A stretch of DNA of 44,980 bases, taken from Leptolyngbya sp. 'hensonii'. Lineage in GTDB: Bacteria; Cyanobacteriota; Cyanobacteriia; GCF-001939115. Numbering within the stretch: position 1 is the first letter of the stretch; every line of letters starts with the position of its first letter. The notes under the pieces are model-generated. The model had not been told where the DNA came from. It worked only from the letters and a program-made list of their open reading frames with translations, and searched no databases. The stretch is from assembly GCF_001939115.1 (NCBI RefSeq), contig NZ_MQTZ01000004.1:1-44980 (forward strand), in the 5' to 3' direction. The translations under genes were made by a program, and so were the position numbers. Shown here one piece after another: positions 6,706 to 40,975 of the stretch.

Positions 6706-7194
6706 ATGACGCGATTCCGAGATTACCAAACCAGTCTGGCCGCATTCGAACGGGAGGTTTGGGTCCGCTGTCCTCGTTGCCAGCAGGCCACCCTGTCCCG
6801 CTGTCTGGATCAGGGTCTGACCTGGCGGATTGCCTGCCCCCACTGTGGGTATATTCAGTCGGCGTTTCGGGATGCTCAGCGCCAGCGATCGCAGCCCTGG
6901 TGGACCCAGGGTTGGTGGGGAGAAGCGCGGAAATTTGGGGGAGCGGTTGATCCCCTGTTTGGTTTGCCCTTGTGGTTACAGGTGCCCTGTTGTGGGCAGG
7001 TTTTGTGGGTCTACAACCAGGCCCATCTGGAGTTTCTGGAGCATTATGTGCGATCGACCCTGCGGGAACGGCAGGGGAGCAAGGGGAATCATCACAGCAT
7101 GGCTGTCCGCCTGCCCCGCTGGATCAAGCAAGCGCAGCATCGGGAGGCTGTATTGAAGGGACTGCAACAGTTAAAGGAGCGTCTGGAGGGGTGA
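6706..7194 (+). CDS. Zinc-ribbon protein of unknown function
   Basis: The 162-aa product starts with a CPRC ... CPHC pair (residues ~22-48), typical of a zinc ribbon. A second 'VPCCGQVLWVYN' segment lies near residue 93, and a basic C-terminal helix ends 'LQQLKERLEG'. The ribbon and the basic tail suggest nucleic-acid or protein binding. No enzyme motif is seen. It is the last gene of the forward cluster before the repeat block. Confidence 0.7.
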   Translation: MTRFRDYQTSLAAFEREVWVRCPRCQQATLSRCLDQGLTWRIACPHCGYIQSAFRDAQRQRSQPWWTQGWWGEARKFGGAVDPLFGLPLWLQVPCCGQVLWVYNQAHLEFLEHYVRSTLRERQGSKGNHHSMAVRLPRWIKQAQHREAVLKGLQQLKERLEG

Positions 7195-7208
7195 CTCTGC
7201 AGCAGCCC

Positions 7209-7522
7209 CACCCCGGCCCTGGGGGCCACCCCTCCCCAGAGGGGATTTTAGACGATCCCTCGTGCCCAGGCTCATCCCTCGTACCCAGGCTCATCCCTCG
7301 TACCCAGGCTCTGCCTGGGTGCGCCAAGCCTGCGGGCCAACCTTCCGGCACCTGAGCAGAGCGGATGATCATGATTTTATGATTGAGATCAGCCTATTTC
7401 ATCGTCCCGATCGCCACGCAGAGAAAGACTGACATGATTGCATTTCCCGACAAAGAGAACCTGACTTCAGTGGCATACCTGGACTGGGAAGCGCAACAGG
7501 AAACCAGATATGAATATGTCAA
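7209..7522 (+). repeat. Duplicated block, left copy (19-bp tandem repeats plus Uma2 5' end)
   Basis: Starting at 'caccccggccctgggggccacc', this block matches 9881-10371 in order: GC-rich palindrome, 19-bp units ATCCCTCGTACCCAGGCTC (three here, 7255-7311), the 'CTGCCTGGGTGCGCC' arm, then 'ccttccggcacctgagcag' and the first codons of a Uma2 gene. Homology stops near 7522. The two copies lie in direct orientation on either side of recD2. Confidence 0.85.
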
Positions 7523-7571
7523 TCTGTGGATTGGGTCTTTGTCCCAGGACCGGGAGTTGCCTCAGGGATGA
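7434..7571 (+). pseudogene. Truncated Uma2-family gene (5' fragment)
   Basis: The first ~30 codons from the ATG at 7434 (MIAFPDKENLTSVAYLDWEA) are nearly identical to the intact Uma2 gene at 10283. After 'RYEYV' similarity ends and 16 unrelated codons lead to a stop. The conserved Uma2 core with its nuclease-fold acidic residues is missing, so this is a remnant left by the duplication. It is 65 bp before recD2. Confidence 0.8.
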
Positions 7572-7636
7572 CCCACTTTGCCCGCTGGTAGGAGGCGGTC
7601 GAACGGGCCAAACATTGGGCGCGGTAAAATCGGGGC

Positions 7637-9841
7637 ATGGAACAGTCATCTCCCTACGAACAGCTACAGGGCATTGTCGAACGGCTGACCTTTCATTCCG
7701 AGGAGTCGGGCTACACCGTGGCCCGACTGAAGGTGCCCCGTGCCTCCGAACTGGTGACGATCGTCGGCAGCTTTGCCAACATCCAGGCAGGGCAAACCCT
7801 AGATCTGACGGGGTTATGGAAGGAGCATCCCAAGTTTGGTCCCCAGTTCCAGGTGACCCGCTATCGGGAGACAAAACCGGCGACCCTGACGGGATTGGAG
7901 AAATACCTGGGCAGCGGCCTGATCAAGGGGGTGGGACCCGTGACCGCCAAGCGCATCGTGACCCATTTTGGTCTGGACACCCTGGATATTATCGAAAACC
8001 AGATTGAACGGCTGGCCGAAGTACCGGGCATTGCCCGCAAACGGGTGCAGATGATTCAGGCGGCCTGGGCCACCCAGAAAGCGATCAAGGAAGTCATGCT
8101 GTTCCTGCAGGGGCATGGGGTCTCGACCACCTATGCTGTCAAAATCTACAAACAATACGGGGATGACGCGATCGCCACCGTCACCCACAATCCCTACCAG
8201 CTCGCGATCGAGGTCTATGGGATTGGCTTTGTCACTGCCGACGCGATCGCCCGCAACCTGGGAATTGCCCCCGACTCCGAATTCCGCTACCGGAGTGGGA
8301 TTCTGCATGTGCTGGGGGAAGCCTCCGAGGAGGGTCACTGTTTCCTGCCGCAGAGTGATCTGGCGCAGCGGGTGGTAAAACGGCTGGCCTTGCCCGACCA
8401 TCAGCCCCAGGCGGATCAGGTCCTATTACTCATGGGACAGATGGTGATCGATCGGGAGCTGATCCGCACCGAGGAGCCGATTCCTTCCCTGGACGAACCG
8501 GGCTACTATGCACCCCCCTTCTACTTTGCCGAACAGTCCCTGGCCGGACGGGTGCAGCAACTGCTGGCCCAGCCCCTGACGGTGGATCTGCCCAGGGTGC
8601 AGCGCTGGATCGAGCGGTTTATCGAGAAAACGGGGATGCCCCTATCAGAGCAGCAGCGGCAGGCCGTCGAGCAGGCCGCCTCCCAGCGGGTGCTGGTCCT
8701 GACGGGGGGACCAGGCACCGGCAAGACCTTCACCACCCGCACGATCGTCGCCCTCTGGAGGGCCATGGGCAAGACCCTAGCCCTAGCTTCCCCCACGGGA
8801 CGAGCGGCCCAGCGACTGGCGGAAATGACCGGCCAGGAGGCCAAGACCATCCATCGCCTGCTGGAGTTTGACCCGAAGCAGATGAAATTCAAACGGGATT
8901 CGGATTCCCCCATCCCGGCCCAGGCGATCGTGGTCGATGAAGCCTCCATGGTGGACCTGTTCCTGGGCAACTCCCTGTTGAAGGCGATCGCCCCGGAGGC
9001 ACAACTGCTACTGGTGGGTGATACAGACCAGCTCCCCAGCGTCGGTCCCGGTGCGGTGTTGCAGGATCTGATGGCCTCCGGGGTAGTGCCCGTGGTGCGG
9101 CTGACGGAAGTATTCCGGCAGGCCCAGACCAGCGCGATCGTCACCCAGGCCCACCGGATCAACAAAGGCCAGAAGCTCAGCCTGGAGACTGTTTCTGATG
9201 ACCCCCAATCTGACTGTCTCTGGCTGGCAGCATCGGAGCCAGAGGAGGGGGTGCAAGGGATTCAGGATCTGATCACCCATTTAATTCCCAGGCTGGGGTT
9301 TGAGCCGATGCAGGATGTGCAAGTGCTCTGTCCCATGACACGGGGAGTTGTAGGCACCCGCAATTTGAATTTGGTGTTACAGCAACTGCTGAATCCTCCA
9401 GCGGCGGGGAAAGCCGAAATTGGGCAAAGCGGATCCATCCTGCGGTTGGGCGATCGGATCATCCAGCAGGTGAACGACTACGATCGGGAGGTCTTCAACG
9501 GGGACCTGGGCACCATCCTCACCCTCGATCCAGAAGAGCAGGAAGTGACAATCCAGTTTGGCGATCGGCGAGTTGCCTATGACTATGCCGACCTCAACGA
9601 GATTGCCCTAGCCTACAGCGTCACCACCCACAAGAGCCAGGGCAGCGAGTACCCAGTGGTGATCCTGCCAATTTACATGCAACATTACCCGATGTTATCC
9701 CGCAATCTGCTCTACACGGGCCTCACCCGCGCCAGAGAGTTGGCCATCTTTGTCGGACCCCAGCCTGCGATCGCCCTGGCCGTGCGGCAGGTAAGGGATC
9801 GGGAGCGGTATACAGGGCTAGCCGATCGGCTGCGGGGTTGA
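7637..9841 (+). CDS. recD2: RecD2-type SF1B DNA helicase
   Basis: This 734-aa ATP-dependent 5'-3' DNA helicase belongs to the RecD2 (RecD/TraA-like) family, which acts in DNA repair without RecBC. It has an OB-like N-terminus, tandem helix-hairpin-helix segments ('LIKGVGPVTAKRIV' ~95-108 and 'VPGIARKRVQMI' ~129-140), Walker A GGPGTGKT at 357-364, a DEAS Walker B ('IVVDEASMVD' ~430), 'VGDTDQLPSVGPG' (motif III) and a C-terminal 'TTHKSQGSEYPVVILP' motif. Length is normal. The gene is flanked by direct copies of a repeat/Uma2 block, so it may have been duplicated around or moved, but its HIP1-rich composition matches the genome. Confidence 0.95.
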   Translation: MEQSSPYEQLQGIVERLTFHSEESGYTVARLKVPRASELVTIVGSFANIQAGQTLDLTGLWKEHPKFGPQFQVTRYRETKPATLTGLEKYLGSGLIKGVGPVTAKRIVTHFGLDTLDIIENQIERLAEVPGIARKRVQMIQAAWATQKAIKEVMLFLQGHGVSTTYAVKIYKQYGDDAIATVTHNPYQLAIEVYGIGFVTADAIARNLGIAPDSEFRYRSGILHVLGEASEEGHCFLPQSDLAQRVVKRLALPDHQPQADQVLLLMGQMVIDRELIRTEEPIPSLDEPGYYAPPFYFAEQSLAGRVQQLLAQPLTVDLPRVQRWIERFIEKTGMPLSEQQRQAVEQAASQRVLVLTGGPGTGKTFTTRTIVALWRAMGKTLALASPTGRAAQRLAEMTGQEAKTIHRLLEFDPKQMKFKRDSDSPIPAQAIVVDEASMVDLFLGNSLLKAIAPEAQLLLVGDTDQLPSVGPGAVLQDLMASGVVPVVRLTEVFRQAQTSAIVTQAHRINKGQKLSLETVSDDPQSDCLWLAASEPEEGVQGIQDLITHLIPRLGFEPMQDVQVLCPMTRGVVGTRNLNLVLQQLLNPPAAGKAEIGQSGSILRLGDRIIQQVNDYDREVFNGDLGTILTLDPEEQEVTIQFGDRRVAYDYADLNEIALAYSVTTHKSQGSEYPVVILPIYMQHYPMLSRNLLYTGLTRARELAIFVGPQPAIALAVRQVRDRERYTGLADRLRG

Positions 9842-9880
9842 AGGGAATAAACTCCACAAGCAACAGCCCCTTCCTGGACC

Positions 9881-10371
9881 CACCCCGGCCCTGGGGGCCA
9901 CCCCTCCCCAGAGGGGATTTTAGCCGATCCCTCGTACCCAGGCTCATCCCTCGTACCCAGGCTCATCCCTCGTACCCAGGCTCATCCCTCGTACCCAGGC
10001 TCATCCCTCGTACCCAGGCTCATCCCTCGTACCCAGGCTCACCCCTCGTGCCCAGGCTCATCCCTCGTACCCAGGCTCATCCCTCGTACCCAGGCTCTGC
10101 CTGGGTGCGCCAAGCCTGAAACCCAACACCAGTAAGGATCAGCACTGGAGGGGAGTTGCAGACGGGGTCAGACTGTACCATGGGGTTAACCTTCCGGCAC
10201 CTGAGCAGAGCGGATGATCATGATTTTATGATTGAGATCAGCCTATTTCATCGTCCCGATCGCCAGGCAGAGAAAAACTGACATGATTGCATTTCCCGAA
10301 AAAGAGGACATGACTCCAGTGGCATACCTGGACTGGGAAGCACAACAGGAAACCAGATATGAATATATCAA
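9881..10371 (+). repeat. Duplicated block, right copy, with nine 19-bp units
   Basis: This is homologous to 7209-7522. The 19-bp unit ATCCCTCGTACCCAGGCTC occurs nine times without spacers at 9927-10097; one unit (the seventh) carries two changes. The palindrome CCCAGGC-TCT-GCCTGGG closes the array. About 70 bp at 10120-10189 are extra relative to the left copy. The block runs into the intact Uma2 gene. The open frames across the array are by-products of the periodicity. Confidence 0.9.
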
Positions 10372-10852
10372 CGGTCAAGTCTATGCTATGACAGGGGGAA
10401 CCATTCCCCACAATGCGATCGCCATTAACCTGATTGCAATCCTGCGAAACCAGGTGCGAGGTGGCCCCTGTCGGGTATTGGGCGCAGATGCCAAAGTCAG
10501 AATTACTGAGCAAGGACCGTTTTTCTATCCGGATGTTTTGGTAACTTGCGACGATCGCGATCGACGAGCGTTCAAATTCATTCAATTTCCCTGTTTAGTC
10601 GTCGAGGTTTTATCTCAAACCACCGAAGCCTACGATCGAGGCAGTAAATTTAGTCAGTATCGCCGTTTGGCCAGCCTCCGAGAGTATGTGCTGATCAGTT
10701 CTGAGCAAATCAACGTAGACATCTTTCGGTTGAATGAACGGGGCAAATGGGAACTGACATCCTATATCGCCAGTGACACGATTCAACTCACCAGTATTGA
10801 TTTTGCCTTTCCCCTGGATTTGCTCTATGAAGAAGTTGAATTTTTGCCCTAA
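10283..10852 (+). CDS. Uma2 family endonuclease-fold protein (DUF820)
   Basis: The 189-aa protein shows the Uma2 pattern 'YLDWEAQQETRYEYINGQVY', 'HNAIAINL', a PD motif in 'FFYPDVLV' and 'CLVVEVLS', the acidic positions of a PD-(D/E)XK-type fold. The family is greatly expanded in cyanobacteria and its role is unsettled. I chose the ATG at 10283; an upstream TTG at 10232 would add 17 residues without family support. The upstream DNA and first ~30 codons are duplicated before recD2. Confidence 0.85.
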   Translation: MIAFPEKEDMTPVAYLDWEAQQETRYEYINGQVYAMTGGTIPHNAIAINLIAILRNQVRGGPCRVLGADAKVRITEQGPFFYPDVLVTCDDRDRRAFKFIQFPCLVVEVLSQTTEAYDRGSKFSQYRRLASLREYVLISSEQINVDIFRLNERGKWELTSYIASDTIQLTSIDFAFPLDLLYEEVEFLP

Positions 10853-11246
10853 ATTGCCCATTGAGCAATCTTGTTAGGCTTCACTTCATTCGTCCCTCGT
10901 ACCCAGGCTCTGCCTGGGTGCCCAAAGCAGACCCACCCCGGCCCTGCGGGCCACCCCTCCCCAGAGGGGAGAAGCGGATTCCCATCTATGGCTCGGTGGC
11001 GTTGCCCAAAGCAGACCCACCCCGGCCCTGCGGGCCACCCCTCCCCAGAGGGGAGAAGCGGATAGTGTAGATTGGGTGCCCTAGATTGCTCATTGAGCAA
11101 CCTAGTATGGTCAGTTAACCAGCCACCAGAGCCAATTAAATAGAACCATCATTTAAGCACTAAACTTAATCCCCTCCTGGGAGGGGTGGCGCATAGCGCC
11201 GGGGTGGGTTCTCAAAAGAGGATATGAAGATTGAAAGATTTGTCAG
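10852..11246. repeat. Intergenic repeat block
   Basis: Two near-identical ~54-bp units, GC-rich with 'ccctgcgggccacccctccccagaggggagaagcggat', lie at 10927-10981 and 11011-11065. They are bracketed by near-identical 'TTG[C/T][C/T]CATTGAGCAA' segments at about 10856 and 11085. One 'CCTCGTACCCAGGCTCTGCCTGGGTGC' segment (10894-10920) ties this block to the arrays around recD2. A 'CCCCTCCTGGGAGGGGTGGCGC' repeat lies near 11170. No coding sequence is supported. Confidence 0.7.
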
Positions 11247-13319
11247 TCAATTAGCCCCCTGGATTTCTGCCAGTTTTTGAGCTGCATAATCACGCAATAC
11301 GGGAACACCGATCGCAGTTCCGATCGCAGAGGCCGCTTCACAAGAGGCGATCGCCGCTTCCACCTGACCCAATTGGAGTTGGGCATTGACAATGAACCGG
11401 AGCAAGTTTCGCCCTTGGCTGTAGCGATCGCCAATCTGTAGATAGATCTGTTGAGCAGATTGAAAATAATCCAGGGCCGAAACCGGATCATCTTGTAAAC
11501 TGCCCAAACCGAGTAAGGTGTTGGCTTCCCCCAGCCGATCCCCCACCTGGCGATAAATCTGCAACGCCTCCTGGTAGCGATTCAGGGCTTCATCGCGTTG
11601 GTCGAGAAACTGCAAGACATCGCCGATCGCTTTTAAGGTGTTGGCTTCCCCCAGCCGAGCCCCCACCTGGCGATAAATCTGCAACGCCTCCTGGTAGCGA
11701 TTCAGGGCTTCACTGCTTTGTTTGAGAAACTGCAAGACATCGCCGATCGCTTTTAAGGTGTTGGCTTCCCCCAGCCGAGCCCCCACCTGGCGATAAATCT
11801 GCAACGCCTCCTGGTAGCGATTCAGGGCTTCACTGCTTTGTTTGAGAAACTGCAAGACATCGCCGATCGCTTTTAAGGTGTTGGCTTCCCCCAGCCGATC
11901 CCCCACCTGGCGATAAATCTGCAACGCCTCCTGGTAGCGATTCAGGGCTTCACTGCTTTGTTTGAGAAACTGCAAGACATCGCCAAAAACTTTCTGAAAA
12001 TCGGCAAAGGGTTTTGAAGTCTCCGGGGGCCAACTGTCCCCTAACCGCGAGTAAAGCTGATAACGAGTCGCACTATACCCTCGGAGCGCTAAAAACTGGT
12101 CACAATCATCCCTGCCGTCTGTACCGTAGTAAACAACCTCCAAGGCAGTGGCATAGGCTCCCAGTTCACAGCAGTGGTGAAACAGTTCCAGGTAAGGAAT
12201 GGCTGCGTCTTCTTCATCTGCTGCCATCAGTCGTTGTTGGCGCGATTGTTGATCAAAATAAGCTGCTGCTTTTTGGTGGGCCTGGGTCAGATCTACATTC
12301 CACTGCACATAGTGAGCAATGGCAGCCTGCACCTGATAGCGCCGGTTAGTGGCCTGTCCTAACTCTTCCAGCAACGATCGGGTAATTAATTCCCGTAGTT
12401 GTTGACGAGTTTCCAGTTCTCTCTCAGAGGCATCTTCCACCATAGAAATAGCCGCCTGAATCGTAAACGGAACCCGATAGACACTCAGATTTTGCAGCAA
12501 AGTCTGTTGTTGGGGATTCAGTCGTTCCCAATGCTGTTGCAAAATCCATTCTAGACAGGTTTCCACCGTCCGATGTTCGCCAGTGGCCCGTTTTGCCATC
12601 TGCTCAAATTCTGTCAGTTTGAGCCGTTCCGCCTCCCTCAGTTGCCCATCACAATAGTTGACCAGAAATGTAGCCGCCAGTTTCAGGGTCAGGGGATGCC
12701 CGTTGAGCAACTGAGAGAACTGTTGCAAGCTCGCCTCGCCTCCTTCCACCCCCCAGGCTGCGAGCAATTTGCCTCCAGCAACTGCATTCAGTCCTTCCAG
12801 CATCCGCCAGGTCGGAACCTCTCGCAGCGATCGGGGCTGTTCTCGCGTGGTCACCAGCACAGCACTGGTCTGGCCTTGGGCTAACCAGCGGCTAAAAAAT
12901 TGATGATAGCCAGGATCTCGCCACTGCTGTTCCAGGTTCAACAGGGTTTCTAGATTATCCACCACCAGTAAATAGCGCTGTTGCCTCAGACAGTGCAGCA
13001 GGACGTTAATCTGCTCTGTGGTGCCTGCAGCGGCGAACCGCTGTTCTTGTTCTGGGCTCAGGGTCCTGGCAAACGTCTGATAGACCTTTTTGGCAAAAGC
13101 GAGAAATTCAGGCTGCTGACTGACATCCGCCCACAACACTGCTCCAAAACCCAACTCCGTTGATTGCTCATACAGGTATGCCGCCAGCCAGGATTTCCCG
13201 ATGCCCCCAATACCCTGAAGCCCAACGATCGCAGTAGCTTCGTTCCGGAGCCAACCCTGGACGATCTCCAATTCCCGCCGATCCTGCCATTTCTTCAGCA
13301 CCGGCGGCAGCGTAATCAC
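11247..13319 (-). CDS. STAND (NB-ARC-like) ATPase with TPR repeats
   Basis: The 690-aa protein begins with an NTPase module: Walker A GIGGIGKS at 36-43, Walker B 'RYLLVVDN' with Asp121, 'VTTRE' near 158, and an NB-ARC-type 'LNGHPLTLKLAA' near 205. A helical middle region (~250-430) follows, then TPR-like 40-residue repeats ('DVLQFLKQSSEALNRYQEAL') and a less regular tail. STAND proteins act as oligomerising signal switches, often in defence; that role here is inference. The annotated start GTG has a TGA 17 codons upstream in the same frame that ends the 152-aa ORF at 13368-13826, so both may be parts of one interrupted gene. A diverged fragment of a paralogue lies at 18163-18602. Confidence 0.85.
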   Translation of the reverse strand: MITLPPVLKKWQDRRELEIVQGWLRNEATAIVGLQGIGGIGKSWLAAYLYEQSTELGFGAVLWADVSQQPEFLAFAKKVYQTFARTLSPEQEQRFAAAGTTEQINVLLHCLRQQRYLLVVDNLETLLNLEQQWRDPGYHQFFSRWLAQGQTSAVLVTTREQPRSLREVPTWRMLEGLNAVAGGKLLAAWGVEGGEASLQQFSQLLNGHPLTLKLAATFLVNYCDGQLREAERLKLTEFEQMAKRATGEHRTVETCLEWILQQHWERLNPQQQTLLQNLSVYRVPFTIQAAISMVEDASERELETRQQLRELITRSLLEELGQATNRRYQVQAAIAHYVQWNVDLTQAHQKAAAYFDQQSRQQRLMAADEEDAAIPYLELFHHCCELGAYATALEVVYYGTDGRDDCDQFLALRGYSATRYQLYSRLGDSWPPETSKPFADFQKVFGDVLQFLKQSSEALNRYQEALQIYRQVGDRLGEANTLKAIGDVLQFLKQSSEALNRYQEALQIYRQVGARLGEANTLKAIGDVLQFLKQSSEALNRYQEALQIYRQVGARLGEANTLKAIGDVLQFLDQRDEALNRYQEALQIYRQVGDRLGEANTLLGLGSLQDDPVSALDYFQSAQQIYLQIGDRYSQGRNLLRFIVNAQLQLGQVEAAIASCEAASAIGTAIGVPVLRDYAAQKLAEIQGAN
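11516..11995 (-). repeat. Four near-identical 120-bp TPR-coding units
   Basis: Four head-to-tail units of exactly 120 bp (11516-11635, 11636-11755, 11756-11875, 11876-11995) differ at only a few positions, for example 'gatccccc' versus 'gagccccc'. Each encodes one 40-residue repeat. The near-identity at DNA level points to recent expansion or gene conversion. The unit nearest 11516 encodes a variant 'DQRDEALNRY' in place of 'KQSSEALNRY'. Confidence 0.95.
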
Positions 13320-13826: not shown

Positions 13827-13924
13827 GGTTCATCCTTCTGAGGAAAGAAAACTTCTTTAGTTATAGCCTGTCTCTAGGGTTCCTGTTGTCACCAGCAAAT
13901 TTTTCCAGGTCAGCCTGGGGTCTG

Positions 13925-14006
13925 CTGGGGTGCCCAGGCAGAGCCTGGGCGTGAGGCTAGGGGGGCTGGGGTGCCCAGGCAGAGCCTGGGCGTGAGGCTA
14001 GGGGGG
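13925..14006. repeat. 41-bp tandem duplication with CCCAGGCAGAGCCTGGG hairpin
   Basis: Two identical 41-bp units (13925-13965, 13966-14006), each containing a CCCAGGC-AGA-GCCTGGG palindrome, are followed directly by half of a family-1 MITE. The palindrome is the reverse complement of the arm used in the 19-bp arrays around recD2. Confidence 0.8.
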
Positions 14007-40907: not shown

Positions 40908-40975
40908 TTAGAGCATAGAGGTTAGAGCATAGAGGTTAGAGCATAGAGGTTAGAGCATAGAGGTTAGAGCATAGA
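40908..40975. repeat. 14-bp tandem repeat TTAGAGCATAGAGG (about 4.8 units)
   Basis: Four exact units at 40908-40921, 40922-40935, 40936-40949 and 40950-40963, then a partial fifth ending at ~40975. The repeat is in the 606-bp gap between the topoisomerase gene and the FAD oxidoreductase pair. No gene is seen in the gap; the region 41000-41277 is likely the leader/promoter of the oxidoreductase operon. Confidence 0.9.

What the first reader, a model, noticed from the sequence alone, without database searches (positions are those of the whole stretch)
7209..10371. recD2 bracketed by a direct duplication containing a 19-bp array and a Uma2 start
The same ordered block occurs before and after recD2: GC palindrome, 19-bp units (3 versus 9), CCTGGGTGC arm, ~100-bp leader and the first ~30 Uma2 codons. 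The left copy ends abruptly and leaves a broken Uma2. This could reflect insertion of recD2 by recombination between repeats, or duplication of the Uma2 promoter region. Recombination between copies would delete recD2.
Basis: partly seen in the sequence, partly recalled or inferred. Interest (0 to 1): 0.5.

Follow-up and report, generated by a model that had tools for sequence, protein, structure and literature searches.

The report
Repeat-anchored partial duplication flanking recD2
In a cyanobacterial genome, a piece of roughly 300 bases carrying dispersed hairpin repeats and the start of a gene is found on both sides of a DNA-repair helicase gene; it looks like ordinary repeat-driven rearrangement, with one unusual detail in how the hairpin repeats grow.

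Summary
A block at 7207-7522 recurs at 9879-10371, same order and strand: GC-rich double hairpin (A), 19-bp array (3 vs 9 units), hairpin B, leader, about 30 Uma2 codons. The block is of two kinds of sequence. A (70 sites) and B (45 sites at up to 1 mismatch) are dispersed repeats that keep company: 10 of 19 B clusters have A within 200 bp against 0.145 at random. Only leader plus Uma2 start (10 mismatches in 189) is a duplication special to this locus. The left Uma2 fragment stops after 45 codons. None of 116 loci from other genomes has two of the genes together, so synteny cannot say whether recD2 or the fragment came later. I favour a one-ended copy of the right block into an A-B site upstream of recD2, over insertion of recD2. 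Here 18 of 45 B hairpins have extra left arms upstream, 2 of 45 extra right arms downstream; in hairpins from other cyanobacteria 4 and 2 of 64. The cause is open.

The parts
6706..7194 (+). 162-aa ORF ahead of the left block (called zn162 here for its CPRC and CPHC motifs, by eye); no Pfam family
   Evidence: matches in 24 of 388 genomes searched, own included
7207..7254 (+). left copy of repeat A: two GC-rich stem-loops
   Evidence: 70 genome sites at up to 3 mismatches to its 21-nt core
7255..7311 (+). left 19-bp array, 3 units; the last unit holds the left arm of hairpin B
7303..7319 (+). left hairpin B
7334..7522 (+). left copy of leader and first ~30 Uma2 codons (ATG 7434); frame continues in unrelated sequence to a stop ending at 7572
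7523..7636 (+). single-copy DNA between broken Uma2 and recD2
   Evidence: query 7515-7640 matches itself and one 19-base stretch at E 0.35
7637..9841 (+). recD2, 734 aa
   Evidence: OB_YrrC, HHH_RecD2, AAA_19/AAA_30, SH3_13, UvrD_C_2
9879..9926 (+). right copy of repeat A
9927..10097 (+). right 19-bp array, 9 units; its last three correspond to the three left units
10089..10105 (+). right hairpin B
10119..10187 (+). segment between hairpin and leader present in the right copy only (6 other bases in the left copy)
10183..10371 (+). right copy of leader and Uma2 start
10283..10852 (+). intact Uma2 gene, 189 aa from ATG
   Evidence: PF05685, 1.5e-39; query began 9 bases ahead of the ATG
10893..11209 (.). 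further repeat cluster: one hairpin B with a single left arm, two forward A copies and one inverted A

Best explanation
The locus is a partial segmental duplication anchored in dispersed palindromic repeats. Shown: A and B are dispersed, associated repeats; the shared block starts at the edge of A in both copies, 12 and 37 bases behind the stop codons of two different genes; it ends without a repeat inside the Uma2 reading frame; the left Uma2 start is a truncated fragment. Inferred: an A-B element lay on each side of recD2; during repair or stalled replication a DNA end paired in the shared A-B sequence, copied on into the leader and the first 30 codons of the intact Uma2 gene on the right, and was then joined non-homologously, leaving the fragment upstream of recD2. 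The 19-bp arrays are B hairpins whose 5' arm, with its lead, is multiplied while the 3' arm stays single. Inferred mechanism for that: polymerase slippage when the template hairpin refolds and displaces a nascent strand that has just copied the left arm.
For: Dispersal of A and B. A-B association: 10 of 19 clusters, random mean 0.145, maximum 2 in 10,000 draws; 8 of 16 if the three clusters of the window's own contig are set aside. An A - multiplied left arms - B - A composite on contig C61, a contig without any recD2 or Uma2 match. No third copy of the leader listed. Six coding differences, 5 nonsynonymous and 1 synonymous (sites, codons recounted by hand from ATG 10283); of 8 homologues from other genomes printed, 8 have P and 6 have M where the left copy has S and L. 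Left units match the last three right units with the shared G variant, in a 76-bp identical run. Arm asymmetry 18 vs 2 of 45, on 8 contigs vs 2; other genomes 4 of 64 with extra left arms; own vs other p 1.6e-5 (18 of 44 contexts, not corrected for clustering).
Against: No relative shows the state before duplication. The edge at A would also be seen if a longer Uma2 duplication had decayed. At codon 29 the left copy's V is the commoner residue in homologues (V 4, I 2, A 2 of 8), so the right copy may have changed too. No microhomology is visible at the start of the 19-bp array (by eye). CTC in the lead does not separate amplified from unamplified hairpins (17 of 18 against 40 of 44 overall; other genomes 3 of 4 against 40 of 64), so a microhomology account of the asymmetry is not supported. 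The random control places repeats anywhere and ignores that such repeats tend to avoid genes, so the true expectation is likely several times higher. Clusters on C7 and C22 share near-identical sequence, and several amplified hairpins lie in the same cluster, so they are not independent.
Confidence: 0.5

Rival explanations
1. recD2 was inserted into a locus that read zn162 - block - Uma2, for example by single crossover of a circle that carried recD2 and a truncated copy of the block, giving direct repeats on both sides.
For: Geometry fits exactly: truncated copy, recD2, complete copy, all on one strand. recD2 is patchy in the class: 100 of 388 genomes, own included, at E <= 1e-100 with at most two candidates scored per genome, and its neighbours differ between families. 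recD2 has the highest GC3 of seven genes measured.
Against: No room for a mobile gene: outside recD2 the DNA between the two block starts is 430 and 37 bp, taken up mainly by the left block. recD2 has HIP1 sites like several of its neighbours (1.81 per kb). Patchiness applies to the whole class and dates nothing here.
Confidence: 0.22
2. A complete Uma2 gene with its upstream region was duplicated in tandem; the first copy later lost its 3' part, with recD2 already between the copies or arriving with that deletion.
For: Uma2 is multi-copy here, with five further matches besides the left fragment, and the left fragment is truncated and altered.
Against: Nothing of the remaining ~160 codons is found left of recD2: 7515-7640 matches only itself and one 19-base stretch at E 0.35. 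The five nearest Uma2 homologue loci show no direct repeat of 40 bp or more.
Confidence: 0.2
3. Assembly artefact: short reads misjoined at the repeats, so that the left block or the array lengths are wrong.
For: Draft genome of 77 contigs; contigs C22 and C66 end about 40 bases behind a hairpin B, and stretches on C22, C61 and C66 contain N.
Against: The left copy differs from the right at 10 of 189 sites and by a 63-bp length difference, so it is not a misplaced copy of the same DNA. Array counts could still be wrong.
Confidence: 0.06

Closest known systems
REP / REPIN elements (PMC3733652, PMC3116915; passages seen)
   Same: Short dispersed palindromes, often clustered, able to occur in tandem arrays.
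   Different: No GTAG or CGTC tag beside the three window hairpins inspected; arrays here repeat one arm only, whereas the arrays in the passages seen repeat whole REPs or REPINs.
Dispersed cyanobacterial hairpin with the core CCCAGGCTCTGCCTGGG, often in the context CTCGTT...AATGC (no name known to me; seen in loci of other genomes)
   Same: Same 17-nt core; 27 of 388 genomes have it exactly, own included.
   Different: In 60 of 64 contexts from other genomes there is no extra left arm within 120 bp.
Segmental duplication at dispersed repeats (general knowledge)
   Same: One edge lies at a dispersed repeat; a truncated gene copy results.
   Different: No difference was established.
STRR and small dispersed repeats of heterocystous cyanobacteria (recalled; not read)
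   Same: Short repeated units in intergenic DNA of cyanobacteria.
   Different: Unit here is 19 bp and derives from a hairpin arm.

Membership tests
GTAG/CGTC-tagged REP | Unpaired GTAG or CGTC at one end of the stem-loop | tested here: not met
   Read by eye beside the hairpins at 7303, 10089 and 10902 only; definition from passages of PMC3733652
GTAG/CGTC-tagged REP | Dispersed short palindrome in many copies | tested here: met
   66 matches at up to 2 mismatches (one place counted on both strands), 30 exact, reversed control 0
GTAG/CGTC-tagged REP | RAYT transposase in the genome (GTAG type) | not tested
CRISPR array | Repeats separated by unique spacers | tested here: not met
   19-bp units abut without spacers
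Composite transposon carrying recD2 | Transposase gene within the element | tested here: not met
   outside recD2 only 430 and 37 bp lie between the block starts, mainly block sequence; ORFs antisense to recD2 were not searched against families
RecD2 helicase | OB, HHH, RecA-like, SH3 and UvrD_C_2 domains | tested here: met

The most novel reading that the evidence does not exclude
One-armed growth of hairpin repeats is a directional process peculiar to this lineage (a strand-specific replication or nuclease event at hairpin B), and the arrays so formed act as recombination anchors, here making recD2 a gene that can be lost in one step while leaving an intact Uma2.
Probability: 0.12. Interest if true: 0.55.

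Novelty: new variant of a known kind. Interest (0 to 1): 0.28.

Why it matters
It shows how dispersed palindromes can seed gene-fragment duplications around a repair gene. The one-sided multiplication of hairpin arms, seen on eight contigs with different unit lengths, gives a countable signature against which models of hairpin-provoked slippage can be tested. A recombination between the two copies would remove recD2 and leave one complete Uma2, which long reads or PCR can look for.

Tried and rejected
Synteny in relatives: of 193 loci then held, 75 were the own genome's and 118 came from other genomes; 116 of the 118 gave a hit to recD2 (63), zn162 (24) or Uma2 (29), and none had two of the five genes tested. 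The 63 include weak RecD-like hits and non-cyanobacterial RecD2; flanks were about 1.5 kb for most loci and up to 6 kb for those. None of the genomes drawn is labelled closer than the same class. No A (up to 3 mismatches) or B (up to 2) was found in the other-genome loci of Uma2 (29), recD2 (44 taken) and zn162 (24).

Plasmid search with 7200-7345: 11 Azospirillum records match 40-44 bases of the A end at 87-90%; not followed. Rfam: nothing in the window at gathering scores. Promoter-like sites: 3 against 1.8 +/- 1.3 in shuffles; terminator-like sites: 6 against 3.8 +/- 2.5; no claim made. Foreign origin of recD2 from composition: not decided. CTC microhomology as cause of the arm asymmetry: not supported. 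Divergence of the repeat part (1 of 124, entered by hand and partly chosen as an identical run) against the leader part (10 of 189): p 0.055, not claimed. Text of the hairpin core in papers: 0 (open PMC library only).

Counting notes: one search used 45 hairpins (30 exact, 15 with one mismatch); the 21 matches with two mismatches were left out, there and. One search also found a solitary left arm downstream of 7 of 45 and a solitary right arm upstream of 1 of 45. One search merges one repeated context (44). For other genomes 64 contexts in 49 loci were used, taken from listed places, not from all hits. Searches with the Uma2 protein began at 10274, nine bases ahead of the ATG; codon numbers printed are off for that reason and were recounted by hand.

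Full report
The window lies in a 5.94 Mb, 77-contig genome. None of the genomes drawn for comparison is labelled closer than the same class. That it is cyanobacterial rests on RecD2 relatives in seven named cyanobacterial records at 69-77% identity and on HIP1 sites.

Observation. The same ordered block occurs before and after recD2. Repeat A (7207-7254 / 9879-9926) differs at 1 of 48 sites. The 19-bp array has 3 and 9 units. Hairpin B closes each array. Leader plus the first ~30 Uma2 codons (7334-7522 / 10183-10371) differ at 10 of 189 sites. Between hairpin and leader the right copy has 69 bases where the left has 6; they have no other match in the genome.

Two kinds of sequence. The core of A has 70 genome sites (up to 3 mismatches) and B 66 matches (up to 2 mismatches, 30 exact); reversed-pattern controls gave 0. 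The leader-Uma2 part has no third copy among the matches, where 40 of 105 candidates were scored, and the Uma2 start none, where all 20 were scored. A and B keep company: B sites with up to one mismatch form 19 clusters, 10 of which have A within 200 bp, against a random mean of 0.145 and a maximum of 2 in 10,000 draws. That control ignores that such repeats tend to avoid genes; without the window's contig the count is 8 of 16. A composite on contig C61 has the order A, multiplied left arms, B, A, on a contig without a recD2 or Uma2 match. So 'palindrome, array, arm' recurs in this genome, and only the leader-Uma2 part needs a duplication special to this locus.

State of the left fragment. The frame from ATG 7434 leaves the homology after 7522 and stops after 45 codons. 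Of six coding differences five change the residue (sites, codons recounted from ATG 10283). Of eight homologues printed, eight have P and six have M where the left copy has S and L; at codon 29 V, the left residue, is found in four, I, the right residue, in two. The left copy is very probably dead as Uma2, and the right one may have changed too.

Which came first. Relatives do not answer: 0 of 116 loci share two of the genes. recD2 is patchy (100 of 388 genomes), with different neighbours in different families. It is the most GC-rich of seven genes measured here, close to zn162, which neither shows nor excludes foreign origin. The shared block begins at the edge of A (judged from A contexts), 12 bases behind the stop codon of zn162 and 37 behind that of recD2, and ends inside a gene without a repeat. 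This one-sided anatomy is what a repeat-primed, one-ended copying event would leave. I prefer it at 0.5, over recD2 insertion (0.22) and Uma2 duplication with decay (0.2).

The arrays. The three left units match the last three right units, with a shared G variant in the first of them, within a 76-bp identical run; the six further right units are identical to each other. Gain or loss was therefore most simply on the side away from the hairpin. Across the genome 18 of 45 B hairpins have one or more solitary left arms within 120 bp upstream and 2 of 45 a solitary right arm downstream; 7 of 45 have a left arm downstream and 1 of 45 a right arm upstream. The amplified hairpins lie on eight contigs with nearest spacings of 15, 19, 20, 21, 23, 28, 34, 39 and 72. 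The differing spacings suggest repeated events, although clusters with the same spacing (C3, C5, C7 at 15) may be copies of one another. In 64 hairpin contexts from other genomes 4 have extra left arms and 2 extra right arms; own against other gives p 1.6e-5, uncorrected for clustering. DNA folding supports the hairpin at the two array ends (z -2.9 and -4.8) and A as two stem-loops more weakly (z -1.8). Slippage would explain one-armed growth, but the microhomology expected in the lead does not distinguish amplified hairpins. The cause of the asymmetry remains open.

Consequence. Recombination between the copies (identical runs 78, 76 and 45 bp) would delete recD2 and leave one complete Uma2. 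This is inference; no such allele was seen or could be looked for.

Literature. I saw passages of PMC3733652 and PMC3116915; other papers only as search listings. The hairpin core was not found in the open library. One-armed arrays did not appear in the passages seen; that is no full search of the literature.

Noticed in passing
11514-11984: 120-bp unit repeated 3.9 times at 98% within an NB-ARC/TPR gene (11247-13319, minus strand): near-identical TPR units.
   Followed up: no
13924-14006: 41-bp unit twice without a mismatch, each holding an inverted hairpin B.
   Followed up: partly
40908-40975: 14-bp unit TTAGAGCATAGAGG repeated 4.9 times without a mismatch.
   Followed up: no
L203 (contig C66) and L205 (contig C22): Both contigs end about 40 bases behind a hairpin B, and both hold Ns, so these repeats seem to break the assembly.
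   Followed up: partly
L202, L203, L204, L205: A second hairpin (CCCAGACTCTGGCTGGG, on either strand) lies between copies of hairpin B in the clusters on C20, C66, C7 and C22.
   Followed up: no
L049 (G042) and L063 (G052): Broken or partial recD2-like matches with stop codons in other cyanobacterial genomes; G052 has a full-length recD2 as well (L035).
   Followed up: no
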